Shown here in pieces: positions 5,508 through 60,091 of a stretch of DNA of 64,000 nt. Below the pieces are notes generated by a model, which did no database searches, had not been told where the DNA came from, and was given only the letters and a program-made list of their open reading frames with translations. The translations under genes and the position numbers were made by a program. This DNA comes from Rosellinia necatrix. Lineage: Eukaryota > Ascomycota > Sordariomycetes > Xylariales > Xylariaceae. Positions within the stretch are counted from its first letter, which is position 1; the number at the start of each line of letters is the position of its first letter. The stretch spans positions 2,790,001 to 2,854,000 of the forward strand of contig JAGYVD010000010.1 of assembly GCA_021209875.1 (NCBI GenBank), written 5' to 3'.

Positions 5508-7035
5508 TCAAACAGTCATTTCCGTCCTCGCCATATCCATGACCCTGAAATCCTTCTCCGGTTGGGGGAGCGGCTCGTCTGGCAGCGTCACGCTAGAAAT
5601 GGGAGCCTTGGGGGCTGCTACAGTAGGAGCAGCCGGCACGGTAGGAGTAACTTCTACTATAGGAGTAGCCTCTACCATAGGAGCAGTCTCTACAATAGGA
5701 GCAGCTATTGCGACAGGAGCGGCTTCGACGATGGGAGCGGCTTCTACGGGAGGAGCAATCTCTACCGGGGGAGTAGTCTCTTCGACGGGAGCAGCCGCGA
5801 CGGCAACAGCAACATCGTCGATGGTCGCGGTAACAGTAGAATCTACAACAGGAGTAGCCTCTTCTGTAAGAGCGGTCTCTACGGTAGGAGCAGCCTCTTC
5901 TATAGGGGTAGCCGCTACGATAGGAGCAGCATCGACGGTAACAGGAGCAGCGCCAACGGCAGCAGCAGCAGCTGGAGTAGCAGGAGTAGCAGGAGTAGCA
6001 GGAGTAGCAGGAGTAGCAGGAGTAGCAGGAGTAGCAGGAGCAGGAGCTTCAATAGTGGAAGCGGCGGCAACACCACCGGTAGCCCCGGCCGAAGCCGAGG
6101 CGGCCACGGCGGCGTTCGCGGCCACGGCCATGCGGCTGCCGATGTCGCGGACCATGTAGATCTGGCCGTACAGGTCTGTGACGTCGCAGAACATGCGCCA
6201 GATGGCCATCTGGCGGGGCTTGGCGCGGTCGAGGGCGGCGTCGCCGGTGCGGCGGGCGGCGTCGTCGAGGCGGCCGAGGGCGTCGTGGAGGCGGCCGCGC
6301 TCGTACTCGGCGAGGTCGAGCAGCGCGCGCCTCTGCAGGTCGGCGCCGCCGCCGGGCCGACGGCCGCCGGGCGCGGGCACGGGCACGGGCACGGGCACGA
6401 CCGGCGCGTACTCGGGGAAGTTGACCGAGTTGAGGTTCCCCTCGGCCGCGTCGCGCGCCACCGAGCCGCAGTCGTTGTACATGCGGCACATGGTCGCCAG
6501 GTGCCGGCACGCCGCCGCCGCCAGGTACTTCTCGTGCACGGTCGGGAAACAGTCGCGCCCCGAGAGCAGCGACGCGCTCATCGTGCACCCCACGAACGCG
6601 AACGAGTACGGGCACGACGTGTGGTCCGCCGACGTCGTCCGCACCCAGTGGAAGAAGCTGTCCGGGCTCGTCGTGTACGCCGTCGCGCAACCGCCCCCTT
6701 TCTGTTCTTCTTGCTCCTGCTTCTCCTGCTGTTCCTGCTGCTGCTGCTGTTGTTGTTGTTGTTGTTGTTGCCGCTGCAGCTGGAAGCGGTTGTTGTCCTC
6801 GAGCTGCGTGACGTGCGCGTGCAGGAACGTCCGCAGCTCGCGCCGCATCGAGAGGCGGTCGTAGTGGCTCGCCGTCGCGATGTACGGGTGGTTCGTCACA
6901 TACGTCACGAATTTGATCAGCGGGATCAGCACCTCGGCATAGCTCGCGTGGTCGATATCGCCGAGGTCGAGGCCGCCGCCGCTGCCGCCGCTGCAGGCGA
7001 GCTCCTGACAGGTGATGGTGCCGGCGTCCCCTTCC

Positions 7036-7067
<32 letters not shown>

Positions 7068-9323
7068 GAACGCCCGGTCGACGAGCTGGCGGAGCGCGTC
7101 CGTCCGGCTCTGGAATACCGTGCCGGCGCAGGACTCCATGAACTCGTCGGCCTGGAAGTTGAGGAACGAGATGACCATCATCTCGTACAGGAAGGACGCG
7201 GACGCGAAGGCGCCCCGCCGGTTGTTGCAGCTCGTCCACGTGAAGGGGATGATGTCGAAGTACTTGTTGTCGTCTTCCATGTTCTTGCGCGGGAAGATCT
7301 CGAGCCGCCGGGTGTGCAGCATCGGCTGGAACAGCACCGACTCCGTCATGGACGCCTGGATCTGCCACTCCGGCGTTTGGGAGAACAGGGGCGTCATCTT
7401 AAGGAGCTTGACGTGTTTGCGCCCGCGGACGGCTCGGGCGCGGTTGAAGATGGTGGCCGCGACCTTCTCCTCGGGCGACGGCGCTGCCGCTCTCCTGAGC
7501 GCCGCTAGGACGTAGCTGTCCCTGATGATTGTGGAGGAAGATGTGACTTTGTCGACCCAGAGAGGGGCCGGGCTGGAAACGTGAAAGGAGCGAAGATAAC
7601 CCGTTCCACGACCCAGTGCTGAGTTCACGGGCGATTCCAAGTCGGCGAACATCGAAAGCCGACGGGCCTCGGCCAGGATAAGGACCCCGTAGGCCGTTTC
7701 CTCAACTGAGGAGTTCCATGACCCGTTATCGTCTTGCCTGAGCATTGTCCATAGACAAGCTTGGAAAACGGTAACGAGTATCCTCGATTCTAAATCTTGA
7801 CCAAGAAGACCGGCTAGGCTCCCGCTGTCAACCAACACTAATAAGTCAACCAGCACCTCGACTAGGAGAAGCGCCGAGTATAGATGACTCGAGTTCTGCA
7901 TATCGCCGTAAGCCATCTGCCTTGGTTCGCATGGGGGAAGAAGGGGGGTTCTAGTTGCTTACCCATTTATCTTTTACTATTCCCTCATCCGCGTTCCACC
8001 AAAAGTCACATACGAATCTGCTAGTTGTTTGTATTTTAGAAGTGTATTGTGAAATATCGGGTTGGCGTAGAAGCACTTTGAGCGCATGGCAATTTGCGCT
8101 TAGACTGGGCTCTCGCTCCATTGCCGAAGTGCGGAAGTGACTTTGGGCGTTAAATTCTTTTATCATGTTATCTATCGGCAGAGGTTGTCCAAGGGACGTT
8201 GTTGACAAAATGCATTGGGCTGTGGTATCAAGATCGGCCTGAAGGCTTGGAGCTGTGTTATACTGTTAGAGGCGAACTCTTCCATGTCGCATGGCAATAG
8301 GAAGCAGACATACCGAAGCCAATTGCCCCATCACCACTTTCAAAGGCACTAAGCAACACCCGTGAGACATTTTGAAGCTCGGGGCACTCCATGTCCGACG
8401 CCGAAAACCCGGCCCGTGATAGGGTCGATAAAACCTGCGAAGTAATTATTTAGTAGCTGTATATCCAAACGGAAAATTCGATCACAAACCCATGCATACT
8501 CGAACTGTGTCGAGGGGTAGATGCTGGGTATGCCACCGCTTCCTTGGCCAGTCCCCTTCAGCATCGTGTGTTTTAGATATTGCTCTGCCTCGTCATCCCA
8601 CTGTGACACGTTCATCAGGTATGCAGCTGTTGACGAAGGTGAGGCCATCATGGAGCCCATGGATTTGTGGTGCGCCACATTGTCGAAATCGATGAATCCT
8701 ATTAACGCCTCAAGCGAGCGTAATAGCGGTGACCTTGCTGGGCCATATAAATATTCGAGCTGGAAACTCGGTAATTCAACAACACTAAGTAGATCTAAGC
8801 TCTTTCGTCCTTCGAATTCAAACGCCGCTGTGTCGGTCTCTTGTTCAAGATATCGTATAAGTGCGGGAAGGATAATCTCGTGGCCGACATGGTTGGTAGT
8901 CAGGGGCTCCCATGCTGTGAGTTGCGCGCGGAGTGATGTGGTTGCCTTCTCAATACGACTCTCTAGGTCGTGGTGAAAGGGGATGTTGAGAGGTTCTGCG
9001 AGATGTCGTTTGAGCGATAGGAGCGCGGCAGCGGTATTGAGAATGCCGTCAATCCGAGATCCTACACTGTGGCCCCAACTGCCATCTTCCGATTGGGCAG
9101 CCAGTATGTAGGCAAAACACTGAGGGAAAAGCCACTTTTCCCCAGAGCCATTATTGAGTGGCTTTCTAACGAGAGACACCCAAGCAGTATCGTAGATGGT
9201 ACAGCTCATAAAGCCGGCGCCGTATCGTTCGTCATATCCTTCAGCAGCCCGCTGAATAAGCGAGATCGCTGCGGCATTATAACTAGCGTGCCCGCTAGCC
9301 GCTGGTCGTTGTTTTGACTCCAT
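5508..9323 (-). CDS. Bifunctional class II/class I diterpene cyclase (CPS/KS-like)
   Basis: Four exons on the minus strand, 9323-8490, 8434-8314, 8252-7963 and 7895-5508, join with closed phases (introns 55, 61 and 67 nt) to 1210 residues. The family converts GGPP to copalyl diphosphate in the N-terminal class II half and then to an ent-kaurene-type hydrocarbon in the class I half. Seen here: a DGSWG motif, the PSSTAAYLMN..WDDEAE signature, a class II acid motif at residues 325-328 that reads DLDT (followed by TA) instead of DxDD, class I DEFME at about 665-669, and a second metal-binding motif in MYNDCGSVARDAAE. Two polyQ runs interrupt the class I half. After the usual family end (DVTDLYGQIYMVRDIGSRM) about 206 extra residues rich in Ala, Pro, Val and Thr continue to the stop. 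An in-frame ATG at 9392 would add 23 residues; 9323 gives the usual family N-terminus. The aldo/keto reductase gene is divergent. Confidence 0.92.
5973..6041. repeat. 9-bp tandem repeat inside the cyclase tail
   Basis: About seven copies of a 9-bp unit (GGAGTAGCA on the plus strand) encode Ala-Thr-Pro repeats in the C-terminal tail of the cyclase. Confidence 0.9.
6735..6770. repeat. polyQ-coding CTG/TTG tract in the cyclase
   Basis: A run of CTG and TTG triplets on the plus strand encodes about twelve glutamines plus a Q/E-rich flank, inserted in the class I half between DEFME and the second metal-binding motif. Confidence 0.9.
7034..7067. repeat. polyQ-coding CTG tract in the cyclase
   Basis: A second glutamine run of about eleven residues lies shortly after the DEFME motif. 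Both tracts sit where family members have variable loops. Confidence 0.9.
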
Positions 9324-9990
9324 CACGGACCTAATCCGAGCGGTCTCGATTAACGTAGGGTGGGAGGAAGGGCAATATTGGCATGGGCACATGCCATGAT
9401 AGCTACAAGGCCAAGATAGAGATCGAGGCTACGGTTATAAAGACAAAAAACTAACAGAGCATCGTGATCGGCCTTGCATCCATAGCCTCTCTATGGCATG
9501 TGACGTACCTCAGAGCGTTTTGTCGCAACAGTGGCCCCCCCGACCGGGCCGCCTCAGTTGCCCACGGGGCATATCCCGTATAGTTACATTACCGCTTCCG
9601 TAATACTTAGTCCAGTCCTAGAGTATAGATATGTATGATGCCATGCTTTAGCGCCTATGCCGGAAGGTGATTGGCCTGTTGGTCTGTATGTATTAACGGC
9701 CTCTCGGTCCCCGACTTGTTTGAGCGATGCCGAACACTGCCTTCTTCCAGCGTGCCCCCTCCTTTCCTCCATACCCCCTCCTCCCCCCTCACCCGTCAAG
9801 GGGCGAAGGTCTAACTTTTTCTCGACTTAGTAGATAACCCCGCAGCCTGATCCGCCTTCTACCCAGCCGGTTCATCCATCGCAAGCTGGGTATTTCTTTC
9901 ATCGCAACTGTCCAAATCCCTCTATTCCATCTCCTCGAGCACTTCGGAATACCGCCGTCCATTACCGTCAAGCTTTACCATTTGCCTATC
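9324..9990. promoter_or_regulatory. Divergent promoter of cyclase and aldo/keto reductase genes
   Basis: This 667-bp region separates the two start codons and must serve both directions. It contains long C/T runs close to the reductase start (about 9740-9800 and 9920-9960), typical of fungal core promoters, and one TCG-N5-CGA element at 9704-9714. No further gene is seen. Confidence 0.7.
9704..9714. promoter_or_regulatory. TCG-N5-CGA element (AflR-type consensus)
   Basis: The bases read TCG GTCCC CGA, matching the palindromic consensus described for AflR-type Zn2Cys6 regulators. It lies in the shared cyclase/reductase promoter. Binding is inferred from the consensus only, and the motif is short enough to occur by chance. 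Confidence 0.35.
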
Positions 9991-11087
9991 ATGTCTTTCC
10001 AACACCCCCGGCTCATGTTTGGTGGCTCCGTTCTTGGAGAGGACTACATTTCGGTAGAGTCCGTCGAAGAACTTCTCATCCTGCTCCAGTCGCTCGGAAT
10101 CAATGAGATTGACACGGCCGCCCTGTACCCCGTTCCCAATATGGGAGAGTCTGAAAGACTTCTCGGCCAGTTGGGCGCCGTCGCAAAAGGATTCGTCATC
10201 GGCACCAAGATCCTAGTCTTGAGTAAGGACGCCAACGGCACTCTGGAGCCCGCCAAGATCCGGGCGTCGCTGGACTCCAGCCGAGAGCGTCTTCGGCTCG
10301 ACAGCACCCAGAAGGTCGGCGTGCTCCATTGCCACGCCCCAGATTTCACCACCCCGATAAAGGACCAGGCCGCCGCCCTGGACGCCCTGCACCGGGAGGG
10401 GCTTTTCGACAAGGTACAGTTCCCGCCCCATTCCGTATCCACAGAAATAGTCGCGTAACTAACACTGCGGTCCGTTTTTAGCTCGGTGTTTCCAACTTCC
10501 CCCTGGACATGTTGACCGAATTCATCGAGGTCTGTGAGCGTGAGGGCTACGTTAAGCCTACTGTGTACCAGGGTAACTACAATCTGCTTAGCCGTGGCCA
10601 CGAGAAGCTGTTCCCGGCTCTACGAAAACATGGCATCAGATTTGATGCCCACAGGTAAGCAACCCCTTCCCCCCCCACAGAACTGACTGAAATTTTCGTA
10701 GTGTCGCGCTAACCCCTGTACTTTGGTAGTCCTATCGCGAGTGGAGTGCTCTCGGGCAAGTTGACCTCCGGCAATATCGAAGGCACGCGATTTGCCAAGG
10801 AAAACATGATCGGAACTTTCTCTAAGATGCAGTATGATAAGAAGGAGTTGCATGATGCCGTTAGATACCTTGACTCGGTGCTGGAGCCGACCGGCGTGTC
10901 TAAAATCGAGGCCGGCCTACGATGGATCTGCTACCATTCACAGCTTAGCCCGGAGGATGGTATCATTCTTGGCGCGAGCAAGCCGCACTATCTGAACGAG
11001 AACGTTGCGTCAATCCGCAAAGGGCCGCTTCCCGTTGAGATCGTCACGGCTATTGAGAAGGCCTGGGAGACCCTGTCAGCGCAGTAA
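9991..11087 (+). CDS. Aldo/keto reductase (AKR7/aflatoxin-aldehyde-reductase-like)
   Basis: Three exons, 9991-10413, 10482-10654 and 10730-11087, join with closed phases to 317 residues, a normal length for the family. These cytosolic NADPH-dependent enzymes reduce aldehydes and ketones on a TIM barrel. The catalytic tetrad is visible: Asp and Tyr in IDTAALYP, Lys in IGTKIL and His in VLHCHAPD. Further family segments are QGNYNLLSRG, HSPIASGVLSGK and the cofactor-binding GIILGASKP near the C-terminus. It is divergent from the cyclase, which suggests co-expression and reduction of a carbonyl made during diterpenoid decoration, or detoxification of an aldehyde intermediate. That role is inference; the family assignment is secure. 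Confidence 0.88.
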
Positions 11088-12223: not shown

Positions 12224-13988
12224 ATGGAGAACATCACACAGACAGCGTCCTCCTTGGACCTGGGGGACTTGGGAGCCTCAAGGGGCACCCTGATAGCGAT
12301 AGTGGGAGGCATACTCGCGGTTTACATCTTCAACTCCGCCATCTCATATCCCTTCCAAGTCGAGGCCCCAGTGGCTGGCAAGGGTGGCCTACTCAGCTTC
12401 GAGTGGCTTGCTAGACTGACCTACTCGTTCAACGCGAGAGAGGTTCTATACCAGGGCTACAACAAAGTAAGTGAATGATTCTTTCAAGGATATGCGGCGC
12501 AATATTTGAAGTACCGAACACTAACGCCCTATCGCATCACTAGTACAAAAATAGCATGTTCAACATCGTCCGCAATGATTCCAACGTCATCGTTATGAAC
12601 CCCAAATACCTAGCTGAGATCGGAAACCTCCCCGACTCGCATAGCAGCTCCAGCGTTGGCCAAATCCGAAATATGGCGGGTGCTTACTCCACTGCCGATA
12701 TTATCATGAAGAGCGACTTGCATTTCCGCCAGATTCAGCACAAGCTGACCCCTAACCTCGTCGCGACTATTCCCATGGTTAAGCATGAGTTGGATGACGC
12801 TCTCAAGGTCGAGACGCCCGACTGCAAGGGTAGGTTCTTCACTCGCAAATCTAAATTTAGCGACCCACCACTAACACGAAGCTCTGTTTAGGAAAATGGA
12901 CTCCTGTACCCATGTTTGAATACCTCTCGCTTGTTGTTGCTCGTGTGACGGGCCGCGTTTTCGTGGGCCCAGAGTTGTGCCGCGACCCGGATTGGATCAA
13001 GGTCAGTCTCGAGTATGACATCAACGTTGGAACGGCTGTTGTTACGCTACGGATGTTCCCCCCGTTCCTGCACCCGATCATTGCGCGCCTGCTTCCATCT
13101 TGGTGGCGAGCTCACAGAGACATCAAGACCGCGGAGCGCATCATCGGCCCTGAGGTGCGAGCCAGGCGTGAGAAGGAGGCCAACGATTTGGATTACGTGA
13201 AGCCGCATGATCTACTTCAATGGATGATGGATGATGCGGTAGATTGGGAAACGGTTCCGGAAAACCTGGCATTACGACAGCTCGTTGTTAACCTTGCCGC
13301 TCTTCACACCACAAGCATGGCTACAACTCACGCCGTGTATGATCTTTGTGCATACCCCGAGTATATCCAGCCGCTACGAGAGGAAATTATTGAGGTCTTG
13401 AGAGCTGATGGCGGATGGCAACGAAACACTCTGAGCAAGTTGCGCAAGCTTGACAGCTTCATCAAGGAGACACAGCGATGGAGCCCGGCCAGTCTAATGT
13501 CATTCAACCGTTACCTACGACAACCCTATACGCTCGAAGATGGTACACATCTGCCCCAGGGAACTCATCTCTGCTTCGCGGCTGAGCCGATCCTGATGGA
13601 CGAGAGCATCGTTCCGGGTGGACGCGCCCAGGCATTCCAACCTTTCCGATTCTCAGAGGCACCCGATGACTCGGAGCACAAGAACCGCAACGACCTAGCC
13701 ACCATCAGCACGACCTCTCTGCACTTTGGAGCCGGCCGCTACGGCTGTCCCGGCCGATTCTTCGCCGCCATGGTCATCAAACTCATGTTCGCCCACATGC
13801 TACTCCGATATGATTTCAAGTACACAGATGAGCAGAAGGCAAAGGGTCGACCCAAGAACTTTACCGCCGACGAGAACATCTTCCCTGATCCTAGCATTAT
13901 GATCCTCATGCGTGAGAGGACCGACATGGAGCCCGATGTTGAGCGCATGCTCTCTGTAGGCGCCGGCCTCGAGGAGTGGGATCTGTAA
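12224..13988 (+). CDS. Cytochrome P450, ent-kaurene-oxidase-like (CYP503/CYP68-type), copy A
   Basis: Exons 12224-12466, 12544-12829 and 12892-13988 join with closed phases to 541 residues. An N-terminal hydrophobic anchor lies at about residues 22-38 (GTLIAIVGGILAVYIF). The I-helix reads LAALHTTSM, the K-helix ExxR is ETQR at 369-372, and the haem loop is FGAGRYGCPG with Cys462. Tyr stands where many P450s have Arg in the FxxGxRxCxG signature, as is usual in this fungal lineage. Overall the sequence resembles fungal kaurene oxidases and gibberellin-pathway P450s, which are ER-bound mono-oxygenases needing a CPR partner. Introns 1 (phase 0 after GYNK) and 2 (phase 1 before KWTPV) match two introns of the P450 at 24435, so the two are paralogues. 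Its likely job is successive oxidation of the diterpene skeleton; the substrate cannot be read from sequence. Confidence 0.9.
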
Positions 13989-15159: not shown

Positions 15160-16913
15160 ATGAATATCATAGAAACTGCCTCGGTTCAGCCTCAATTAGG
15201 AGGGATAGGCTGGCCATCGGGAAATGGAGAAGTCAAACAGCTACAGTTCCGTCAAGAGGTGGATGCAGTACTAGGAACGCCACCGGCATCTGTGCCCAGG
15301 AGCCACAATTGGACGCGATCCACGTTGAATAGTCATAACGAGACTGTCAATCCGGGGAAGAACATACCTGGTGACCGAGCTGTGCCAGATATACTCCAGA
15401 GAGACGGGAACTATACTACTATCACAGCATTAGATCTTGCTGGCACCGACAGCAGACCAGGCACTCGTGATGGATGCTTCTACAGCCGAACCGACGGCGT
15501 CAGCGACTCCTATGAGAGCAGCGACTATAATGCACCAAAGTCTGTGGGCCTAGGCGATACCAATCTGTCGCCCGCAGGGACGGAGGTGTGTATACACCGA
15601 AATTTCAACCTGATAACATAATTGTATACCGCTGACTCTAAACTCCTGTCCCCGCCCCCCAGGCAGTGATGGCGCCTTTCCATTACATCAGCTCTTTGCC
15701 CTCGAAAGGCGTAAGGGACATGTTAATCGCGGCACTGAATCTCTGGGTTGGCGCAGCCCCAGAGGCGCTCGCGAATGTGAAGTCAGCTGTCGGCGATGTG
15801 CATAATATCTCGCTAATGTAGGAGGCCTTTCTCCTAGAGGATGGCCCCCCATGTGCCGTTTGCTTTGTGTCAATCGTCCTAAAGCCGGGATCAGATGTAT
15901 AGAAAGGAGTTGGGCTGATATAATCTAGGCTGGATGATGTCCAAGACAACTCGCCTATGCGGCGAGCAAAACCTGCAACCCATTGCGTATTTGGTATGCC
16001 GCAGACCGTTAACTCGGCAACGTACCATATTGTCGATGTTATATCGCGTGCACGACATCAATATGGGACGGAGTCGTTGGATATTGTTATTGGTATGACC
16101 TCCTATTTGTTAGATTCCCCCTACACTAGAAATTTGTCACTGACATTAGGTGTCTAAGATGAGATGAAGAATCTTCTAGTTGGGCAGTCACACGATCTGC
16201 TTTGGACACATCTCTTGTCAGTACCTTCGGTGGAGAGCTATTTACAGATGGTAGATGGAAGTAAGCCCAGGCTCTTCGATCACTCCTCTTATTTCGTTAC
16301 AGCGACGCAGCAATTAACCATCTCACATTAGAAACTGGCGGCCTATTTCGGATGGTTTCGAGGCTCATGATAGCCCAATCCACGTCACCGGATAAGCCCG
16401 AGTCACTCGACCGGCTAATGACACTCTTCGGGCGATATTTTCAGATTCGCGACGACTATGCCAATCTCGTCTCGGGTCAAGTATGTAGCCCCCCCTCCCT
16501 CACCTCCTTCAAATGCCGAGCTGGAAATGCCCCCTCAATTGCAGAACCGCCAAGGCTAACACAAGGTGTTTTTCTCACAGTACGTCAAGACCAAAGGCTT
16601 CGCCGAGGATCTCGACGAAGGTAAATACAGCTTCATCCTAATCCACGCGCTGGAGAACGCGGATGAAAGAACGCGGACGGTGCTGGAGAATCTGCTCATG
16701 CGGCGACGTGTGGCAGGGAGTGCGGACGATTGCCAGAAAGACCTCACCCTCGCGCTTCTCCGCGAGATTGGATCTCTGGCTTTCACTGCACAGGCACTAC
16801 GAAACCTGCGTGACGACATCGAGGTTGAGACTAGCCGGTTGGAGGCCGTCACGGGCAAGCAAAACCCCGCATGGCGCAAAATTCTAGGAGCACTAAATAT
16901 CGAGATGGCTTGA
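15160..16913 (+). CDS. Geranylgeranyl diphosphate synthase
   Basis: Six exons, 15160-15585, 15663-15817, 15929-16092, 16159-16260, 16332-16480 and 16581-16913, join with closed phases to 442 residues. The enzyme adds isopentenyl units to farnesyl diphosphate to give C20 GGPP, the substrate of the neighbouring cyclase. Visible are [12 protein letters not shown], the first Asp-rich motif LDDVQD at 195-200 with the following RR and [21 protein letters not shown] and the second Asp-rich motif RDDYAN with Asp323 and Asp324, then [14 protein letters not shown]. About 145 residues precede the synthase core, a polar, low-complexity N-terminal extension as found in cluster-specific fungal GGPP synthases such as ggs2. 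All catalytic Asp residues are present, so the copy looks functional. A second, housekeeping GGPPS should exist elsewhere in the genome. Confidence 0.93.
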
Positions 16914-17385: not shown

Positions 17386-19352
17386 TTACGGTTTCCTAAG
17401 CCTCACATGAACAGGCATTTTGTCCTTGGGGTGCATTGTTCCATTTCCAGCGGGATACAGGCGCTGGCCCTTGACGGTGTACTTGGGGTTGCTCGGGCTA
17501 GAGTGGCATACCATTAGTACTAGCGAACCTAGGTACCCTGGAAAGGGAAAACTTACTGCTTGGCATCCCACTTGTCCCAGGCTTCTGCGATGTCGAATTT
17601 GCGAGCACACATGATTAGAGCCAATCTAACCTCCACGACGGCAAGCTCTTGGCCAATACAGTTCCTTTGACCCAAGCCGAAGGTCCGGAAAGCGTCTTTC
17701 TGAGGATGGAGGGGATGGCCGTTGGGAACGAGCCACCGCTCAGGGAGGAACTCATTCGGCCGTGGCCAGAGAGCTGGGTTTCTTTGTGTCCATCCGATTG
17801 CATCCCAAACACCGAACCCATCGGTCGGGTATTTAGTGGGTGAGCCCGGCACGGTAAGGAAGTAATCTAATTAATCGAACTTGTTAGTCTGATGTCTCCA
17901 ATGGATAAGGGCAGGCTTCCGAGTAGCCAGGTCCATCGCGACTCACCGGGTGTTCCTTGTCTGATAGCGAATGTAAGGGGATACATCCGCAACACCTCCT
18001 TCACCACGGCGTGTGTATAGGGGAGAGAATTCAGGAGCTGCGGTGCCTTTTTGAGAACGAGAGAGGCTTGGTTGGGGTCTGGGCCGAGAATCTGGTCGTG
18101 TTCAGCACGAATTTTCTCCATCCATTCAGGGTTGTCCTGCAGCTCTTTGAAGACCCAGCAAATAAGCCCCGAGGTAGTCTCGAAACCGGCTAACAAGAGA
18201 ATCTTCAGATTGCTCATGATAGACTTGTATGAGGCCTGGTCTAGCGAAGAGACGGTAAGAGCTTTCTGACCTGTCTGCTCCTCGATTTCCTTGAGAGCTT
18301 GGTTCAGAAGCGTAGTCTTCTTTGATGCAGAGCCACCGGCACTCATTGTCTTCTCGACGTCGGGTAAAAGCTCATTCTCCATAATCGCATTATTGCGTTT
18401 AAACGCCCATCCATTCCACGGTAGAAGATCCGTGGTCAAGAATGAGCGAGCTACATCGCCTCTGGCCTCCATCCGCTCAACTTGATCTAACAACGCCCGC
18501 TTAAGCGGACTTCCATTTTCACTAGTCTGTTCGCCAAGTCGTTTGCCGCTGTGGCCATCGTTAGCGTCGTTGCGTGAATGTCGCGGAAGTAGGGGTATAG
18601 ATCTTACACAGATGCGCGAAAGATGACATCGAGCGTCAGGTCTATCGTTTCGCCTTGTAGTTGAAAAACAGGACCCCATGAGCCATTCTTGCCGGCATAC
18701 TTCTCCAGGTTGTCCGCGAAGGCTTGCATTTCCTCCACCAGCTCCGGAATCATTGCTACAACATTGCGCGGACTGAAGCCCGGGTTGAAAGCGGAGCGCC
18801 ACTTCTTCCAGAGTTCGCCATGGGATGAGAGAATGTCGAGGTTTTGGCTTAGAGGTTTTAAGAAATTCCTTGTGATGGAGTGTTTTTGCAGGGTTCGCGC
18901 GGCCATGAATTCAGCCGAGCAGGTAGCGTCAAACACTACCACAACGGGTTCCTGGAGGAATGGCCACATATCGAGATATACTATTGGCGGGACTTCGTCT
19001 AACTGCGGGAAGTATTTTTTTACATTCGCCGCCAGCCAGCCGTGGAATAGGATAAAGCTGATATCGGGAGGCATCTCATTCTTCAGCTGGGCGACGATGG
19101 GGAGGTGGCCAAACAGCCATGAATGCGGGAGCATGGGCTACACAGTCCTATCATTAGCCATACTAACGCGCACAAATTCCGACTTGAAGGAACAAAACTT
19201 ACTATCCCTTGCGCCGCCAACTCCCTGTGTCTCGATCTGATCTTGTACGTTCGATAAACAAACTTGGAGATCGTATACACCACCCAGGCAGCAACAGCAC
19301 GCCAAGCAAGGCCCCATACGGCCAACATCGCGTCGGATGTGAGCCACTGCAT
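17386..19352 (-). CDS. Cytochrome P450, family uncertain (copy C, unrelated to the other two)
   Basis: Five minus-strand exons, 19352-19203, 19137-18608, 18548-17947, 17866-17557 and 17497-17386, join with closed phases to 567 residues. An N-terminal membrane anchor (MLAVWGLAWRAVAAWVVYTI) is followed by a proline hinge region. The I-helix reads LLAGFETTSGL, the ExxR is in KEVLRMYP, and the canonical haem loop FGLGQRNCIGQ has Cys497. Sequence around the C-helix (HGELWKKWRSAFNPGFS) is like CYP52/CYP59/CYP4-clan fungal enzymes that act at terminal or subterminal positions, and differs clearly from the kaurene-oxidase-like pair. It is divergent from the desaturase-like gene with a 637-bp shared promoter, which argues for a joint role in late tailoring. 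The exact CYP family and substrate are not recognisable to me. Confidence 0.88.
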
Positions 19353-19989: not shown

Positions 19990-21093
19990 ATGGCCATCGA
20001 TCAAGTTACGAGGCTCAGGCATATCGTGTGGGATGATGCCTTCCGCAAGTCCAAGCCCACCCACTACAATCTCGAGCCCCCGAAAGGGGTGCCGAACATG
20101 AACTTCTCCCTGGACCTCGCCCCTGAGCAGCGCATTGCTGATATGCGAGGTGTCAGCGAGCCTTTTGAGCTGGATCAGCATGGCTTCACATGGCGCAAGC
20201 ATCCCCTACCCCCGATTAGCTGGGACAAGGAGAGCATCGAGAAGATTTACCTGCCTTTGGCGGAGGAGCTCATCCGCGAAGCGGTACCCGGCGCCACGAA
20301 AGTTGTCTCCTTCGACTATCGTGTGAGCCTCAATTGTATCCCCTGAACACCTTTTAATCATGTTCTGACCGGCGATATAGCTTCGAAGCACCGGAGATTA
20401 TGTCGACCCAGCTGCCGAGCTAGCTTTCAAGAACTTCACGGAGTGGATTGCCCCCTTTGAGAGGGTCCACGTCGGTATGTTTCTGCTTCTTGGAGCTAGA
20501 GTTTTGCTTCGGCTATAGTCTCATTATTGTATACACAGACCAGACACCGGCGCGAGCCAAGGAAAGGGTTATTGAACAGATGGGAGAGGAATCAGAGTAT
20601 CTTCTCACACATCGTTGGAGTTGCATCAAGTACGTAACTCTCCGCCTACTAATTAGCACAACTGGACTGACGTTGAGCGCAGCCTTTGGCGGCCGATCCG
20701 GAATCCCGTCCTTGACTGCCCGTTGGCTATGTGCGATGCCGGCAGTGTCGGTCCCGACGACCTAGTAGCGACGGATAACTACCGTGAGACATTCTCCGGA
20801 GAGTCTTACTACATGGTGCACAAACCCGAGCACAAGTGGTATTACTTGAGCGAGCAGACTCGGGATGAGGCTCTTCTGTTCAAAATCCACGATTCGTCGG
20901 ACGAAGTCAATGCTAAATGTGAGTACCCAAGTTAATGCTAGCGCTTAGCCGGCGGGAGACATACGATACTAATATTGCTGGACTAGGCTGCCCCCATACG
21001 GCCTTTCAGATCCCTGGGGCTGTAGGGACTGTTCCTCCGAGAGAGTCCATTGAAGTGAGGTTCCTTATATTCACCGCGCCGGAGGTAAATTGA
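19990..21093 (+). CDS. GA4-desaturase-like / CmcJ-family oxygenase
   Basis: Exons 19990-20322, 20381-20474, 20539-20629, 20683-20918 and 20987-21093 join with closed phases to 286 residues, near the usual 280-340. The family includes the gibberellin cluster DES (GA4 desaturase) and other fungal enzymes likened to cephamycin CmcJ; they act as non-haem Fe(II)/2-oxoglutarate-type oxygenases. Recognisable family blocks are AREYFLR-free N-terminus ending VVSFDYR, the NLWRPIRNPVLDCPLAMCD block, GESYYMVHKPEHKWYY, a LFKIHDSS block, and CPHTAFQIP followed by RESIEVRFLIF, which ends the domain with a conserved His (about 255) and Arg. The reaction could be a desaturation or hydroxylation of a diterpenoid acid. 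In gibberellin clusters a DES gene next to the P450s makes GA7 from GA4, so its presence here is strong context for a GA-like pathway, but the family is also used in unrelated clusters. Confidence 0.85.
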
Positions 21094-21945: not shown

Positions 21946-23853
21946 CTATGCCTTCTTTAGAAGAAATCCGTTGTTCTGGAGGGTTTGGAAAACTCCGGTT
22001 GGATCATATCGAGAGGCGATGTCTCTCAGCCGCTTGAGATTCTTCGGGCCGAAGCTAGCAAGGACATTCTGATTGTATCCAGAGTCGTTCATGATCTTTG
22101 TCTCGAGATAAAGTCCACGAGCCTTGGTTATAGCTTCGACCTTCTCGGTAAGTTTAGTAATCGCGGCCCTGGCAGCTTCATCATTTACACTGTCCGCCCA
22201 CTCAAGAGAATAAGCCATATCTAAATTAACAATTAGCAAGAGCCTTTGTTCATCATTGTAGCAATGGTTACTTACGATTCTGTAGGCCTTCTTTCAAGCC
22301 AACTGGGTTTCCTCCCGTGGAAGCGGAGTGTTGTACTGCTGCGCTTGTAAATGGCTGGATCACGATGCCTGTAGCTGCACCGAATTTCCGAGCCTCGGAA
22401 TCGAAAATGAGATACTCGGCAAATATGTCTTTCAGGGTTGTCGCATCGAACCTGTGAGAAGTTGACGCTATCATTCTCCTGCATGATATCGTTAGCAACC
22501 TGAGATTTTTTTGGGTTCATTCCACGGAGTATCGAGTCACACCTTTTGTAGGTCTCGGGGTTAATAGCAGAAATTGCATTGTTCATGTCAACCATGTTTC
22601 CGATTGTGGAATTGATTCCGTGACCCGTTGACGGTATGTCGTAAAACATGCTGTACGTGTTGGGACGTTCCACCGGCTTTGCATAGATAAACTCGACAAA
22701 TCCTCTTTTGGGGCTAAGAGTAAATGAGATGGCGGCATTGGGGTCATTCTCCGCTGCATGAGCATATTCAACGATGGCGTCCAAAAGCTTCAAGTTCTGT
22801 TCGGGCGCATAATAGAGCCCCTCGAACCAGTAGGAGCCATTTTCCGTCGTTTTGACGTCATATTTCGTGACAACCCCTACGAAGTACATTAATTCATACT
22901 ATTGTGGAATTGGTGAACCAAGGTGAAGTCATACCAAAGTTTGTGCCAGTGCCTTTCAGAGCCCACCATAGGTCCGAGTTGGTTTGGGCGTTCGCGTTGA
23001 TGATAGATGAGTTCGCAAGGACGACCTATGGGAAACCGGTCAGATGGTCAATTGAAAACTGGCGATAAACAAAAGCTTACTTCGTAGTTCACTATGTTGT
23101 CCGCAGCAAGGCCATATTTGCTATTGAAGTACGTTAATCCACCTCCGAGGAGATACCCACCGACACCGACGTAGTTGATGCGTCCGCCATGCACGGTTTT
23201 ACCCTTGGCGTTGAGAGCCGTGTCGACCGCCCCGAAGCGAATCCCAGGGGCAAGGGAAGCGACGGAGCCATCTTTACTGAGCGCCACATCGGTCATATGT
23301 GACATGTCAAGGAGGACACCCTCTTCACCAATGCCCGCGAAACCGGGATTGGGGTTATGGCCGCCACTACGAATCGCAAACTTCGTACCCAGATATGTCA
23401 CAATGAGCATAGCTTTGGAGACATCTTGTGCGGACGCTGGTTGGATAATGCACTGGGGCTCGAACCAACATGCACTAGACCTAGAAAGACGAAAAAAGTA
23501 GAAGTGTTAGCCATCCATTGCTCAATTCCGGTTGAGGGGAGGGTAGAGCTTCCTCACCAGTTGACCTCCACCAATTCATCATAGTTGGATGTGGATTGGC
23601 CAACAATTTGCGAACCAAAGACCGCATTAGCAACAAGGCATGTGACAGAGCTCCTCTCCGTCGGGCTGAGGCCAGAAACAGCGTCAAGATCAATGCCGCG
23701 AAGGCCCTTTGAAAGCCGCGACTCTTGAGCCTGGGTCAGGCCAAGCTGGGTAAGGAATTGAGCGCTGTCGGTGATATCGCTGTATGAGGACGCTCTCACA
23801 CGGCCGGACCAAGCTAGCAAGGCCAAGCACGTAGATACGACGTTGCCATGCAT
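21946..23853 (-). CDS. Secreted FAD-linked oxidase (berberine-bridge-enzyme-like)
   Basis: Six minus-strand exons, 23853-23558, 23480-23081, 23025-22935, 22876-22543, 22478-22276 and 22220-21946, join with closed phases to 532 residues. A signal peptide is evident ([21 protein letters not shown]). The FAD-binding PCMH fold shows IRSGGHNPN with His140, the residue that carries FAD covalently in this family, then the [10 protein letters not shown] loop and [16 protein letters not shown]. The C-terminal substrate domain follows and ends with the family's [23 protein letters not shown]. No CxxxC-type second FAD attachment is apparent. Members oxidise alcohols, sugars or ring carbons, using O2, in the secretory pathway. 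In this cluster it could dehydrogenate or oxidatively cyclise a late diterpenoid intermediate. It is divergent from P450 copy B. Confidence 0.88.
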
Positions 23854-24434: not shown

Positions 24435-26427
24435 ATGGCGCTCGTCGGCGAGTTGGATGCACTGAAGCAACGTGCAGTCGAGCTGATCGAGACGGCGCAG
24501 GCTTCAGAGCAGTTTGCGATTGCAGTCGAGTTTGTCGAGACAGCGTCAACTTCACAGCTATTTGCAATTGCCATTGCCCTCTATTTCACATTTTCTTTCT
24601 TCCTACGTAAAAAGAGCCCTACCGTGGCTGGCGCCCCTGTATATGGATATCGGTCCTTTTTCGAGCCAACCCTCTTGCTCCAGATTAGGTTCACCACAAG
24701 TGCCTACAACATTATCGATGGCGCATACAACAAGGTACGCTCTACTTACCCCTGGCTATAGACGCTCTAGAATGCCGTTCTAACAAGGCTGCACTTCCGC
24801 AGTTAAAAAATATCCCCTATGTGCTCCGCCGCTATGACACCGACATTACTATCCTGCCGATCAAGTATCTCGAGGAGATGCGTCTTATCCCGAGAAGCAA
24901 GCTGAACGGGAAAAAGGCTCAAGTCAATGCAAGTTCCCTGGCCCGTGAATACTTCCTAAGGGACGTTATTCTAATACCAACCCCGTTTAGAACCTTGTAC
25001 CAAAATGGACCTGGACCCAAGTCATGATGGACTCGGATCTTCACGTCCATGTTCTAAATACCAAGCTTAACCCCGACTTGCCAAAATACATCGACATCGC
25101 TGGACGCGAGCTGGAATATGCTTGGAATATAGACGTCCCTCGGCCAAATGGTTAGTTCCCTCGCTTCAAGATGAACACGCCTGGGCTTCGAACGCGCGCT
25201 GATTTGCCGAATCTTCAGAATGGACCGAGGTTGATATTCAGGAATCCATGCGCATGCTGGTCGCACGTATGTCGGCGAGAATCTTTATGGGCGAACCGGC
25301 CTGCAGAGAAAAGGAGTGGCTGAAGGTGTCAATCGATTTCACCTACGATATGTTCTTAGCAGCTTTCACCCTCCGAATGTTCCCACCTTGGATGCATCCT
25401 TTCGTGGCTCATTTTGTCCCCGCTAGATGGCGAATTCGGAAACAGATGAGGATCGCCAGGAAGTATGTCGGCGCACATACAAGGAAACACACAGAGGCCC
25501 TCAAGAACGGAGAAAAGGGAGAAGACACTCTGCTAGGATGGATGATTGATCACGGCACTGACAAAGAGAAGGAAATCTCGGAGATGGCAGCACGTCAATG
25601 CGTATTGACGCTCGCTAGCATCCATACGACTTCGATGAGTGTGAGTAACCTGCTGTTTGACCTTTGTGCCTACCCAGAGTGGTATCCTGTGCTGCGCAAA
25701 GAGATCGACGATGTCGTGAAAACATACGGCAAGATTGACGAGAGCGAATTGAACCACAAACAATGGCTCGCGAAATTAGAGATTATGGATAGCTTTATCG
25801 TGGAGGACCAGCGGATTAACCCTCCCATTTTGCGTAAGTAACCCCTGACAAGACATTGACGACCCTCGCGTTAATCCTTCGGCACACACAGTCAACCCTC
25901 AGAGAATTGCCCTCGTGCCCCTTACACTAAAGGACGGAACCAAAATCCCCGTTGGAGCGAGAATTGCATGGGCAGGGCACCACCACGCCAATGACCCAGA
26001 CGTTGTTCCCAACCCGGACAAGTTCGACCCGATGCGAAGCTATAGAAAGCGCTACGCCAATAACGGCGAGTTCAAGTCTAAGTTCACTGCCGGGCAGACG
26101 GATAAGAATAGTCTGTCCTTTGGGTACGGCGGCCAGGCATGCCCTGGTCGGTACTTCGCGGTGGCAGAGATCAAGCTAGTGTTGATGCGGTTGCTGCTAG
26201 AGTTTGATTTCAAATTGCGGGAGGGCCAGAAGCGACCAAAGCTCATGCAGTACGTGTACCAATACCATTCACTCACCGATCTCGACCAATTCCCCCCCTC
26301 CCAGATCGGATCTTCCCGTTCTTCGTGGTTCAGGCAATTTCTAACTCTTCATTGCTATAGTGCCGACGAGAACGTGTTCATGGACCCTCATGCCAAACTC
26401 ATGATGAGAACTCGGAAGGATATATAG
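24435..26427 (+). CDS. Cytochrome P450, ent-kaurene-oxidase-like (CYP503/CYP68-type), copy B
   Basis: Six exons, 24435-24734, 24803-24928, 24991-25150, 25219-25833, 25892-26249 and 26361-26427, give 541 residues, the same length as copy A. The anchor is FAIAIALYFTFSFFL followed by a basic stop-transfer and a GYRSFFEPTLLL block typical of gibberellin-cluster P450s. The I-helix is LASIHTTSM, ExxR is EDQR, and the haem loop is FGYGGQACPG with Cys484; Gln sits at the usual Arg/His position. The second intron (24929-24990) uses a GC donor (AAT followed by GCAAGT) if aligned with copy A residue by residue; a GT donor six bases earlier would shorten the loop and fit less well. It should act in the ER on the same diterpene backbone as copy A or on its product. 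Confidence 0.88.
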
Positions 26428-26995: not shown

Positions 26996-28585
26996 TCAGA
27001 GGTTCCCAACGTCAAATTTCAATCGTAACCTTTCCCCATACCTGAGTAGCACCAAGGTGATAGGTAGTAGAGCCAAGGCTAAGAACCCTAACAAGCTATT
27101 CCCCCACCCATACCCTAGTTTGCCATAGAGACTTTGACCAGCGAGTGGTAACAAAGCACCGACAACGCTACGAACAAGGGCATTAGCGGCGAGCGCGCTG
27201 GCAGCATAGAGTTTGAAGGCGTCCACGGAGTATATGGTGATGCAGAAGAAAACTGAGAGGATTCCGAATCCAACAAAGCCAGTTCCAATAATCGGCACGA
27301 TCCAATGAATACGGTATTCCACTGTCCACCCGTATAGAAAAAGTCCAACAGGGATGAAAAGGGCCGTATAGGCAAGAGGGATCAAGCGAGCCTCGGGTTT
27401 GGGGGAACCTCCAGGCTCTTTGTTAGCAGATTTAACGTTAGGCATGATGAAGCGGTCGGACAGAGGCCCAATAAGTAAGCCGAAGACAGACCCAACCCCC
27501 AGGCCCAAGAAGCTGAGCCCAGAAACACTGGTGCTGAAGTTGTATCGGCTCTCGAAGACATATGTGAATGTGCTAAGCATAAGGTACTGATACCCATATG
27601 CGAGACCGGCATACAGGGCAAGAAAAAGCACTATGGGTGACTTCATGAGCATTTTCGTTGGTCGAAGAATAGAATGAAGAAAATGTTGTGCTGTAGACCT
27701 ATCCCCGGATGGGGCAAGCTTCGATCTCAAGGCCTGGTTGCCGGTTTGCTTCCTTAGACGAGCAGCTTTCTTCTCTAGGATGATAACAGGATAAGTCTCC
27801 TGTACGATGAAGAAAGAGATCACCGTCAAGAAGCCGGCGGCAATTGCGAGTGCCCAGAAGTCCCATCGCCAACCCTTGGCTTCGGCCAAGAAACCACCAG
27901 CAACGGGCCCTATTACGGGGCCCAGGAGGGGCGCGAGAGAGTAGATGGAAAGCGCCACGCCGCGATGTTTTTGCGGGACAACATCCCCAATCTAAAGCAA
28001 ACTAGTCAACAACGGTGAAAAATGACGGAGGTGAGGGTCGAGACATACCGTGCCTCCGCCATTGGCGATAGGGGCCGCTCCGCTGATTCCTTGAAGAAGA
28101 CGGAAAGCAATGAGCATGCCCATATTCGTGCTCACGGCACAGGCAACGGTAAAGACAACGAATCCAATGTTACAGACTTGGTAGACCCATACTCGTCCGT
28201 ACAGCTCGGAGAGTGGAGCGAGGAACAGAGGTCCGAAAGCGAATCCCAGTACAAAGATAGAAACGACGAAGCCGGCCAGCAACTCATTGTCACTGCCGAA
28301 CTCTTCCATTAGCCGGGGGACGCCCGGGGCGAAAATGACGGATCCCAGTGACGTTAGGAGTGTCAGAATACTGACGATGCCCACATTCGCCACCTTCTTC
28401 CAGGTAGGCCAGTTCATAGGGTTAGCAGGATCCTGGTCACCCTCCCAGAAGACAATGTTAGGGTCCTCGTTGGCCACACCCCTGGCAGGCTTGTCTTCGC
28501 GGACAGGCTGCGCTGTGTCGCTCTCGCCAGCAAATGAAGCAACATCTTGCCGTCCGTGGGACGAGCGGCCCGAATGTACAGACAT
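26996..28585 (-). CDS. MFS exporter (DHA1 drug:H+ antiporter type)
   Basis: Two minus-strand exons, 28585-28049 and 27991-26996, join across a 57-nt intron (ANGGGT to IGDVVP) to give 510 residues. After a polar N-terminal tail and the fungal DHA1 signature (DPANPMNWPTWKK) come about twelve hydrophobic segments. Motif A-like LSELYGRVWVY lies after the second segment, and the antiporter motif C-like LLGPVIGPVAGG lies in the fifth. A longer open frame upstream to 28954 is available but lacks family resemblance; the ATG at 28585 gives the normal start. Proteins of this type export toxic or signalling small molecules across the plasma membrane. Lying at the end of the enzyme block, it is the likely exporter of the diterpenoid or a self-protection pump. 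Confidence 0.9.
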
Positions 28586-31318: not shown

Positions 31319-32803
31319 ATGTTTCAGGTACTGCGACAGGCGAATCAGCGAGATGGAACCTATGTTTTAGAGTCCACCAGCCCTCCTTTCGAGAAGAGGG
31401 ATCAAGCCCAGTTCGTGAGGCTAGCGTGCCTTCGATGTCGAGAGAAGAAGGTATGTCAGCCGCCACGGGAGACGACATGACGCCGCTGACCTCAACCGCT
31501 CGCGTGCCAGGTGAGATGTACGGGGGACAAGGACGGCTGTCAACGATGCCGTGATAAAGGGGCTCACTGCTCCTACGCAGACTCCTCATCTTCGTCGGCT
31601 TCCTCGTTGTCTTCGTCGGCTGTCTCTTCGGCCGTCGAGAGAGCTTCCGTCCCGCGGTCAGCCGCCGTCATGTTGACTCCCCCGGCCACGGAGCCGCCAT
31701 CCACCATCACCGCCACCACTACCACTACCACTACCACCACCAACACCAACGCCAACACCAACACTAACACCAATACCAATACCAACGCCACCAGCAGTAG
31801 ATCGTCGAGTAACACGCCAGCTACTTCCTTACCAGAGAGCCATTCAACCAGTGGCTCAAGCGTGTTTGACGACAACACAACAAATTACGATTTCACCCAT
31901 GTCGAATCCGACTTCATACATGACTCATCGGGCTCCATGTTGCACGACCCCTTTAATCCTTCGGGGGGCACGTCTATGAGCAATATGCATCCTCCTTTTT
32001 CGTCCTTTAATGATTTCCTTCACGAACCCCTTTTCAATTTCCCCAGCACAGAAGGCACCGAGGCTGTCCCACGCAAGGCGCTGCTGCCACCGCACCGGAC
32101 CAGCAACGAACAGGCCACCGAATCCGACCCAGACCTTACTAATTGCTACTCGTCCCATGACCTTCTCCAAGCCTTTGAGGCCGTCGAAGTCTGTCTCGTC
32201 TGGACACCGCGGGCCCCCACTACTACCAATGCGAGCCCCTTACTGCTCGGGATTGACGAGATGTTGACGTGCCAAAAAGAGGTGCTAGAGAGTTGCCGAG
32301 CGCGGATTCAGTGCAAGAACTGCCGGCTCCGCTCTCATGACGCCGTCATACTAATGAACATCTGCGAGAAGCTACTTAGTAGCATACTAAGGGTGAAGGC
32401 CGTGGTGGACAGCCAACGGAGTCATGACCTGGGGCGGCCACCCAGCTGTCCACGAGTGCCGTCTTTCCTCAACTCGACCACCAGTCCGTATTATTTAGTA
32501 GAGCAGGTAATGTTTCAGAAACAGGACAATAGGCATCCTCAGCGAGGGGACGTGGGTAGAAACCGCATCAACAGCCTCGACACACAAGCCTTGGACTTGG
32601 GATTGGGCGAGTGGCGGGTCGACGATGAAGACAAGTTACATGTATTAGCGAGCTTGTTGAGCATTCGCATGGTGAAACTAAAGCACGTGGTGCAAGAGCT
32701 AGAGGAAGCCGTCATGTCCAATCGCTGGCTAGTTCATGCCACGATGGTCAGAGACCTTTCAGGATACATATCAAAATGCCAAGCCGGGATCTTGGATTCA
32801 TAG
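31319..32803 (+). CDS. Zn(II)2Cys6 transcription factor (AflR-like), likely cluster regulator
   Basis: Exons 31319-31450 and 31511-32803 join across a 60-nt intron inside the zinc cluster and give 474 residues. The binuclear cluster is complete: Cys37, 40, 47, 54, 57 and 64 in a CX2CX6CX6CX2CX6C pattern, with the basic REKKVR between. A Ser/Ala run and Thr/Asn repeats (TTTTTT.. and NTNTNTNTN) form a linker. The C-terminal part has the fungal regulator pattern LLQAFEAVEVCL and RARIQCKNCRLRSHDAVILMNICEKLL seen in AflR-type proteins. An in-frame upstream ATG at 31034 would add 95 residues of unlikely sequence. It acts in the nucleus. It lies 2.7 kb from the exporter at the edge of the block, the usual position of a pathway-specific regulator; two promoters in the cluster have the AflR-type TCG-N5-CGA motif. 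Confidence 0.85.
31712..31795. repeat. ACC/AAC repeat in the regulator gene
   Basis: Tandem ACC then AACACC-type units encode Thr runs and Asn-Thr repeats in the linker of the Zn2Cys6 protein. Confidence 0.9.
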
Positions 32804-59793: not shown

Positions 59794-60091
59794 GTATGAG
59801 GTCGGGCGTGAGCGAATAGGGGCAATCCTAGGTTGAGTTGTTTGAATTGTGATTGGGTTTAACTAGGCAGAATGTACATTAAAGAGATTAGATTGGGGCA
59901 AGCTAGTGGAAATTCGCATCATGTTTGTTAATGCTTATATCGCACGGCTAGAGGATACATTCATGGCACAACACTACGAGTCAATTGATACATATAACAA
60001 AATCTCTTAGGCAAGTTTTTGTATTGAGAATTCCAGATTTAGTAAGTAGGCGATGCATACAACCAGCACCAAAGATGATCACCAAAAAGTA

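What the first reader, a model, noticed from the sequence alone, without database searches (positions are those of the whole stretch)
5508..32803. Gibberellin-like but non-standard diterpenoid gene cluster
Seen: bifunctional cyclase, GGPP synthase, three P450s (two kaurene-oxidase-like), DES/CmcJ-like oxygenase, secreted BBE-type oxidase, AKR, MFS exporter and Zn2Cys6 regulator within 27 kb. Known: the Fusarium fujikuroi GA cluster has GGPPS, CPS/KS, four P450s and DES, without oxidase, AKR, exporter or regulator. Inference: this is a new relative of the GA pathway, or a different ent-kaurane/labdane-type pathway built from the same parts.
Basis: partly seen in the sequence, partly recalled or inferred. 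Interest (0 to 1): 0.88.

Follow-up and report, generated by a model that had tools for sequence, protein, structure and literature searches.

The report
Fungal diterpene cluster with half-dead cyclase
A fungal gene cluster for making a diterpene natural product is built around a cyclase that looks two-in-one but whose first catalytic site appears to have decayed, so it probably depends on a partner enzyme encoded elsewhere or makes a different skeleton.

Summary
The cluster is real: ten intact spliced genes at 5508-32803. The host is Rosellinia necatrix (P450-1 100% identical). It is not a gibberellin cluster: the cyclase is 39-40% identical to Fusarium GA synthases, and no Fusarium protein is among the 87 hits to P450-1. 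The unexpected point: the 'bifunctional' cyclase has probably lost one function. Its DxDD motif reads DLDT, and its three nearest relatives covering the motif read DLDN, NPNN and NLDN; 113 of 121 rows keep DxDD. Five near-invariant positions, all in the beta/gamma half, are changed in all four proteins, including the last Asp of DxDD and the His of the LHS motif; 0 of 29 invariant alpha-domain positions are changed in the query. Beta/gamma diverges 1.37-2.00 times as much as alpha (1202 control pairs: median 0.88, 95% 1.13, max 1.70). Against: the proton-donating middle Asp is kept in three of the four. Best reading: a class I-only synthase fed with copalyl diphosphate in trans, perhaps giving an isopimarane. 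Closest precedent: AsPS/AsCPS of Arthrinium sacchari (PMC10999977). Activity is untested.

The parts
5508..9323 (-). Diterpene synthase (gamma-beta-alpha, 1217 aa, 4 exons: 8490-9323, 8314-8434, 7963-8252, 5508-7916); class I motifs intact, class II motif degenerate
   Evidence: spliced model; homologs; motif and constraint tests
8224..8235 (-). Degenerate class II motif DLDT (residues 325-328) in place of DxDD
   Evidence: coordinates; comparison
7134..7148 (-). Class I metal-binding motif DEFME (residues 672-676), intact
6435..6476 (-). Class I NSE-type motif NDCGSVARDAAEGN (residues 896-909), intact
9991..11087 (+). Aldo-keto reductase, 324 aa, 3 exons
   Evidence: PF00248 1.6e-42
12224..13988 (+). 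Cytochrome P450 'P450-1', 541 aa, 3 exons; heme motif FGAGRYGCPG
   Evidence: PF00067; 100% identical to an annotated Rosellinia necatrix protein P0121
15160..16913 (+). GGPP synthase-type prenyltransferase, 442 aa, 6 exons, about 140-aa N-terminal extension; DDVQD and DDYAN motifs (by eye)
   Evidence: PF00348 4.5e-52; PDB comparison; model
17386..19352 (-). Cytochrome P450 'P450-2', 567 aa, 5 exons; heme motif FGLGQRNCIG
   Evidence: PF00067 4e-49
19990..21093 (+). CmcJ/NvfI-family oxygenase ('DES-like'), 286 aa, 5 exons; HVD and a distal H present (by eye)
   Evidence: NF041278 224.9 bits; NvfI structures 7emz/7de2; model
21946..23853 (-). BBE-type FAD-linked oxidase, 523 aa, 6 exons, signal-peptide-like N terminus (by eye)
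   Evidence: PF01565 3.8e-25, PF08031 0.00043; EncM and carbohydrate oxidases in PDB
24435..26427 (+). Cytochrome P450 'P450-3', 541 aa, 6 exons (one GC-AG intron); heme motif FGYGGQACPG
   Evidence: PF00067; relatives on contigs of the same length as the clade's cyclases
26996..28585 (-). MFS transporter, 510 aa, 2 exons
   Evidence: PF07690 8.8e-49
31319..32803 (+). Zn2Cys6 regulator, 474 aa, 2 exons
   Evidence: PF00172 4.9e-8

Best explanation
A labdane-related diterpenoid cluster of Rosellinia necatrix whose cyclase works only as a class I synthase. SHOWN: the class II (beta/gamma) half carries a degenerate active site and has diverged under relaxed constraint in a four-member clade (three of four labelled Xylariaceae), while the class I (alpha) half of the query keeps every near-invariant residue tested. 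INFERRED: the cluster's own prenyltransferase makes GGPP; a class II cyclase encoded elsewhere turns it into copalyl diphosphate (CPP), the C9 and C2 loci being the only full-length cyclases found elsewhere in this genome; the alpha domain of the window's enzyme ionises CPP to a tricyclic olefin, perhaps of the isopimara/sandaracopimaradiene type; P450-1 and P450-3, then P450-2, the CmcJ/NvfI oxygenase, the BBE-type oxidase and the AKR oxidise it; the MFS protein exports it and the Zn2Cys6 protein switches the cluster on. My confidence that class II activity is lost is about 0.8; the figure below is for the whole statement including CPP in trans. It was lowered from 0.5 to 0.45 on re-checking, because the hint for C9 as the CPP source proved weaker than first noted (see evidence against).
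For: DxDD is DLDT here and DLDN, NPNN, NLDN in the three nearest relatives that cover the motif; 113 of 121 rows keep D-x-D-D, the other exceptions being two rows with a gap there and two singletons, DVGD and DVDG. Clade support 1.0. Columns at least 97% conserved in the 113 rows outside the clade: alpha half 0 of 29 changed in the query, P0001 and P0002 (0 of 8 in truncated P0004); beta/gamma half 6, 9, 13 and 12 of 74 changed in query, P0001, P0002, P0004. Five are changed in all four, all in beta/gamma: conserved K183, H202, D328, R471, Y541 in query numbering. H202 aligns with the LHS histidine of AtCPS 3pya, part of the base dyad in PMC11795633 (passages). Divergence ratio beta-gamma/alpha 1.37-2.00 in 6 of 6 clade pairs versus 1202 control pairs, median 0.88, 95% 1.13, max 1.70. 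For CPP and product type: P450-3 is 88, 82 and 80% identical on contigs of the same length as the cyclases of the three other clade members, and 78% in VMCG_03255 next to the DVDD-bearing Cytospora cyclase VMCG_03254, so the tailoring enzymes probably see the same kind of substrate. P450-1 and P450-3 relatives share one 3.9 Mb Apiospora contig; that Arthrinium and Apiospora are close or the same genus is recalled. AsPS uses CPP (PMC10999977, whole text).
Against: The middle Asp, which delivers the proton (PMC11795633), is kept in the query, P0001 and P0004 and lost only in P0002, so residual or altered class II activity cannot be excluded. Two control pairs (P0117/P0119 with 6, P0033/P0059 with 5) also share 5-6 changed beta/gamma columns and yet keep DxDD, so that count alone is not unique. 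The query alone has 4 changed N-part columns; controls have 95% at 3 and a maximum of 6. 2, 8, 9, 0, 2 and 9 of 1202 control pairs reach the ratios of the six clade pairs. No class II partner lies in the cluster. The C9 enzyme is not shown to be a CPP synthase: DVDD and DEFME present, 0 of 29 alpha columns changed; the low ratio 0.55 belongs to a 14-tip group that includes SonA-type proteins with a damaged alpha half, while the 11 Xylariaceae-type tips give 0.65 and its own 4-tip group 0.91, within the range of other clades. X. telfairii, N. abortiva and 'L. mahajangana' show no P450-1 among 87 hits. No product is known.
Confidence: 0.45

Rival explanations
1. Class I-only synthase that uses GGPP directly, like plant synthases with vestigial class II domains (taxadiene synthase; recalled), giving a non-labdane diterpene.
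For: Same degeneration of the class II half; the cluster has its own GGPP synthase but no second cyclase; its prenyltransferase resembles prenyltransferase domains of chimeric synthases (stellatatriene synthase 252.6 bits, fusicoccadiene synthase 234.8, versus stand-alone GGPPS 2dh4 156.4).
Against: The alpha domain of the query keeps all 29 tested invariant positions of its DxDD-bearing relatives, and P450-3 is strongly conserved with a cluster whose cyclase has DVDD. The related split pathway in Arthrinium uses CPP (PMC10999977).
Confidence: 0.25
2. Still a working bifunctional cyclase with an unusual class II motif (DLDT keeps the proton-donating middle Asp), perhaps with altered product.
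For: Middle Asp kept in 3 of 4 clade members; the gene keeps a full-length open frame over all three domains; the middle Asp is the one also conserved in oxidosqualene cyclases (PMC11795633, passages).
Against: Change of the last Asp, of the LHS His and of three further near-invariant beta/gamma positions in all four; NPNN in N. abortiva; faster divergence of the whole half.
Confidence: 0.22
3. Relative of the gibberellin pathway.
For: Same kinds of parts: GGPPS, CPS/KS-type cyclase, P450s, a DES-like oxygenase; some P450 relatives are named ent-kaurene oxidase.
Against: Cyclase 39-40% to Fusarium GA synthases and grouped with other fungi; no Fusarium protein among 87 P450-1 hits; extra BBE, AKR, MFS, regulator.
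Confidence: 0.03

Closest known systems
AsPS + AsCPS, Arthrinium sacchari two-enzyme route to (-)-sandaracopimaradiene (PMC10999977, whole text read)
   Same: A class I synthase with a mutated beta domain works on CPP made by a second enzyme; GGPPS and P450s clustered; relatives of P450-1 and P450-3 occur on one (3.9 Mb) Apiospora contig.
   Different: AsPS lacks the gamma domain and its partner AsCPS sits in the same cluster; the window's enzyme keeps gamma-beta-alpha at full length and no partner is in the cluster.
Fungal bifunctional CPS/KS-type cyclases (GfCPS/KS, AN1594/PbcA, PaDC1, CiCPS-PS)
   Same: Domain order, length, alpha motifs DEFME and NDxxS..E.
   Different: DxDD and other class II positions degenerate in the clade.
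Gibberellin cluster of Fusarium fujikuroi
   Same: GGPPS, CPS/KS-type cyclase, P450s, a 2-oxoglutarate-type oxygenase.
   Different: 39% cyclase identity (P0086), no Fusarium hit to P450-1, additional BBE, AKR, MFS and regulator.
son genes of Paraconiothyrium archidendri (SonA, SonI; names from database only)
   Same: SonI is 63% identical to P450-3.
   Different: SonA (43%) groups with the C9-type cyclases; its alpha half has 2 of 29 invariant columns changed, 9 of 29 in its close relative P0055. No paper on them was found.

Membership tests
Bifunctional fungal labdane-type diterpene synthase | DxDD class II motif | tested here: not met
   DLDT; 113 of 121 rows have D-x-D-D
Bifunctional fungal labdane-type diterpene synthase | DExxE and NSE class I motifs | tested here: met
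   DEFME and NDCGSVARDAAEGN
Bifunctional fungal labdane-type diterpene synthase | makes CPP and then an olefin from GGPP | not testable with these tools
   needs enzyme assay
Class I-only synthase with vestigial class II half (AsPS-like) | mutated class II catalytic residues with intact alpha domain | tested here: met
   6 of 74 beta/gamma versus 0 of 29 alpha invariant columns changed in the query; the proton-donating middle Asp is kept, so partly a judgement
Class I-only synthase with vestigial class II half (AsPS-like) | partner CPP synthase in the same cluster | tested here: not met
   only one cyclase locus on contig C5 in three own-genome searches
Class I-only synthase with vestigial class II half (AsPS-like) | activity on CPP but not GGPP | not testable with these tools
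   needs enzyme assay
Gibberellin cluster | cyclase in the group of GA ent-kaurene synthases | tested here: not met
   nested groups around the query, up to 13 tips, hold no Fusarium GA synthase; 39-40% identity
Gibberellin cluster | orthologs of the four GA P450s | tested here: inconclusive
   no Fusarium protein among 87 hits to P450-1 and one (F. oxysporum) among 120 listed hits to P450-3; some hits are named ent-kaurene oxidase; P450-2 not searched; GA P450 sequences not at hand
CmcJ/NvfI oxygenase family | NCBIfam NF041278 over its cut-off | tested here: met
   224.9 bits, cut-off 80

The most novel reading that the evidence does not exclude
A fungal gamma-beta-alpha synthase, derived from a bifunctional CPS/KS by decay of its class II site, acts directly on GGPP (or a longer chain made by its chimera-type prenyltransferase) and founds a non-labdane pathway: a fungal counterpart of plant synthases such as taxadiene synthase, conserved in Xylariaceae.
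Probability: 0.2. Interest if true: 0.8.

Novelty: new variant of a known kind. Interest (0 to 1): 0.6.

Why it matters
PMC10999977 (2024) states that in fungi only bifunctional tri-domain enzymes had been identified for labdane-related diterpenes before AsPS/AsCPS. A mostly Xylariaceae clade in which the class II half decays while full length and the class I half are kept would be a second, differently built departure, caught at an intermediate stage. It makes a question directly testable: how do fungal pathways tolerate loss of the CPP-making step, by sharing CPP between loci or by switching substrate? It also warns that the label 'copalyl diphosphate synthase' carried by two of these proteins (P0001, P0002) is probably wrong.

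Tried and rejected
Gibberellin reading: rejected on identity, tree and P450 hits. C9 paralog as a reciprocally degenerated partner: first suspected from a stop in a search row, rejected after its exons were read: the spliced frame is open and both halves look intact. Its low class II/class I divergence ratio was first taken as support; on re-checking, 0.55 belongs to a 14-tip group with SonA-type proteins, and the 11-tip and 4-tip groups give 0.65 and 0.91. Structure prediction of P0002 without an alignment was useless (mean pLDDT 35) and not used. A first domain split that counted part of beta with class I gave 1.32-1.83 versus 1525 control pairs, max 1.27; replaced by the finer split. Pfam PF01397 in the own genome rang nowhere, controls included. 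Paper searches for the son genes and for Rosellinia diterpenes gave nothing on this cluster; the sdn-like (sordaricin) cluster reported for R. necatrix in PMC9095873 (passages) is built on a different synthase, SdnA. 'Not in print' is claimed only for these searches.

Full report
OBSERVATION. The window is C5:2790001-2854000 of a 49.1 Mb, 12-contig genome. A home-made gene finder and hand splicing gave ten intact genes between 5508 and 32803, with the families listed under parts. P450-1 is 100% identical to a protein named Rosellinia necatrix, and the C9 paralog is 99% identical to another, so the host is R. necatrix or very close to it (Xylariaceae).

NOT GIBBERELLIN. The nearest cyclases are from Xylaria telfairii (64%), Nemania abortiva (66%), a record named Lasiodiplodia mahajangana (69%), Cytospora schulzeri (55%) and Diaporthe helianthi (53%); Fusarium GA synthases P0085 and P0086 are at 40 and 39% (120 of 243 hits listed, and only candidates sharing most words were scored). 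No Fusarium protein is among the 87 hits to P450-1; one F. oxysporum protein (49%) is among the 120 listed hits to P450-3. Several hits bear the database name ent-kaurene oxidase, which is not evidence of function. P450-3 relatives are 88, 82, 80 and 78% identical in the first four of these species and 74% in D. helianthi, on contigs of the same length as the cyclase contigs (48577, 232351, 25188, 1174438, 19675), with neighbouring locus tags in Cytospora (VMCG_03254/03255) and close ones in the Lasiodiplodia record (g1527/g1523). In a table typed from selected rows of those lists, 25 contigs (14 of them under 250 kb) carry a cyclase together with a P450-1 or P450-3 relative, 4 of them all three, and 3 further contigs, one of Apiospora, carry both P450s without a cyclase in the table. 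So P450-1 and P450-3 look like part of a labdane-type core. The other cluster genes were not tested for conservation in relatives, and the cluster borders are inferred.

THE CYCLASE. In the query the DxDD motif reads DLDT. In 121 aligned rows 113 keep D-x-D-D; the exceptions are the query (DLDT), P0001 (DLDN), P0002 (NPNN), P0004 (NLDN), two rows with a gap (P0005, P0010) and two singletons (P0040 DVGD, P0060 DVDG). The four form one clade with support 1.0; its sister is Cytospora plus D. helianthi (0.90), then Lecanicillium (0.99). The D. helianthi model lacks the motif stretch, which may be an annotation error; I had no DNA to check.

CONSTRAINT TEST. Columns conserved in at least 97% of the 113 rows outside the clade (117 rows in this alignment) were counted. 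Alpha half: 0 of 29 changed in the query, P0001 and P0002, 0 of 8 in truncated P0004. Beta/gamma half (62 + 12 columns): 6, 9, 13 and 12 of 74 changed in query, P0001, P0002 and P0004. Five are changed in all four: query residues 183 (conserved K, now E/Q/A/A), 202 (H, now R/C/R/R), 328 (last D of DxDD, now T/N/N/N), 471 (R, now W) and 541 (Y, now S). A HMMER alignment to AtCPS 3pya places position 202 on the LHS motif, described as half of the catalytic base dyad in PMC11795633 (passages); counting along that alignment places position 183 on AtCPS K245, whose number and role I only recall. Pairwise divergence of beta/gamma relative to alpha is 1.37-2.00 in the six clade pairs; 1202 control pairs have median 0.88, 5-95% 0.62-1.13, maximum 1.70; 2, 8, 9, 0, 2 and 9 controls reach the six values. 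By the first, coarser split the clade and its inner triple had the highest medians of the clades listed, 1.49 and 1.51. Against uniqueness: two two-member control clades share 6 and 5 changed beta/gamma columns, and a single control reaches 6 changed class II columns. The proton-donating middle Asp is lost only in P0002.

WHAT IT PROBABLY DOES. With the class II half degenerate and alpha intact, the enzyme is most likely class I-only. Two substrates are possible. CPP in trans is favoured because alpha keeps the invariant positions of its DxDD-bearing relatives and because P450-3 is shared with a cluster whose cyclase has DVDD. Three own-genome searches (only best candidates are scored) found cyclase-like loci at C5, C9 (1446206-1449260, 957 aa, DVDD, DEFME), C2 (1002 aa, DADD, DEYME) and an alpha-only stretch at C11. 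C9 has a prenyltransferase and a P450 beside it; apart from its 99% R. necatrix match its nearest hits are 86-88% identical, four named Xylariaceae records (Ustulina by recall) and one unnamed. It is a possible CPP source, not a demonstrated one: alpha invariants intact, and its ratio is not unusual once SonA-type proteins are set aside (0.65 for 11 tips, 0.91 for 4). P0018, named copalyl diphosphate synthase of Diaporthe amygdali, is 71% identical to the first exon stretch of C9; that PaDC2 of this species yields only CPP is recalled, and that P0018 is PaDC2 was not checked.

PRECEDENT. PMC10999977 (whole text) describes AsPS (active alpha, inactive beta) plus AsCPS (beta-gamma with truncated alpha) making (-)-sandaracopimaradiene in Arthrinium sacchari, and states that only bifunctional tri-domain enzymes had been identified in fungi to that date. 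Fischer et al. 2015 (PMC4617483, passages) report DxDD not conserved in 3 of 47 fungal cases. The window's enzyme differs from AsPS in keeping full length and in having no partner in its cluster. Xylaria species make many isopimaranes (PMC9609704, passages), which fits the product guess but does not test it.

REGULATION LEAD. CGG-N7-CCG, a plausible Zn2Cys6 site, occurs 6 times in the three divergent promoters (CPS/AKR 2, P450-2/DES 1, BBE/P450-3 3) and 0 times in the four other promoters, the regulator's own included; 1.09 per kb over all seven versus 0.20 per kb in 198 kb of other stretches of the genome; 0 of 2000 random sets reach 6. The window as a whole has 26 (about 0.4 per kb), 14 of them outside the cluster. 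It was the best of 40 patterns tried, so it is a lead only.

VERDICT. A real, intact cluster; not gibberellin; a new variant of the labdane-related kind, built on a cyclase whose first catalytic site has probably been lost.

Noticed in passing
window 15160-16913 and L032:5139-6194: The cluster's prenyltransferase is closest among solved structures to prenyltransferase domains of chimeric synthases (stellatatriene synthase 252.6 bits; stand-alone GGPPS 156.4) and has a 140-aa N-terminal extension; the C9 prenyltransferase scores highest with a copalyl diphosphate synthase-type domain (382.9) and stand-alone GGPPS (314). Chain length (C20 or C25) is open.
   Followed up: partly
window 5508-6128, 6712-6782, 7026-7067: The R. 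necatrix synthase carries poly-Q loops in the alpha half and a 206-aa Pro/Ala/Thr/Val-rich repeat tail that is much shorter in P0001 and P0002.
   Followed up: partly
window 9326, 9945, 19566, 24032, 24050, 24163: CGG-N7-CCG palindromes concentrated in the three divergent promoters of the cluster.
   Followed up: partly
P0062 (SonA), P0055: Opposite loss: these cyclases keep DVDD but have 2 and 9 of 29 alpha invariants changed, as if the class I half were decaying.
   Followed up: partly
L021:1399-4407 (C2:6262830-6265838): A third cyclase, about 36-39% identical to its best listed matches, single exon, with poly-D and poly-G tracts, and a P450 just upstream.
   Followed up: no
L031 (C11:2261955-2263039): An alpha-domain-like stretch with DEYME and YGSLARDAEE; no class II half found; gene or relic not decided.
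   Followed up: no
P0004, P0210: A record named Lasiodiplodia mahajangana (Botryosphaeriales) encodes a cyclase and a P450 grouped with Xylariaceae ones (69 and 80% to the query); mislabelled genome or transfer.
   Followed up: no
window 58484-61380: Divergent dehydrogenase-like (below Pfam cut-off) and epoxide hydrolase (EHN + Abhydrolase_1) genes, outside the cluster.
   Followed up: no
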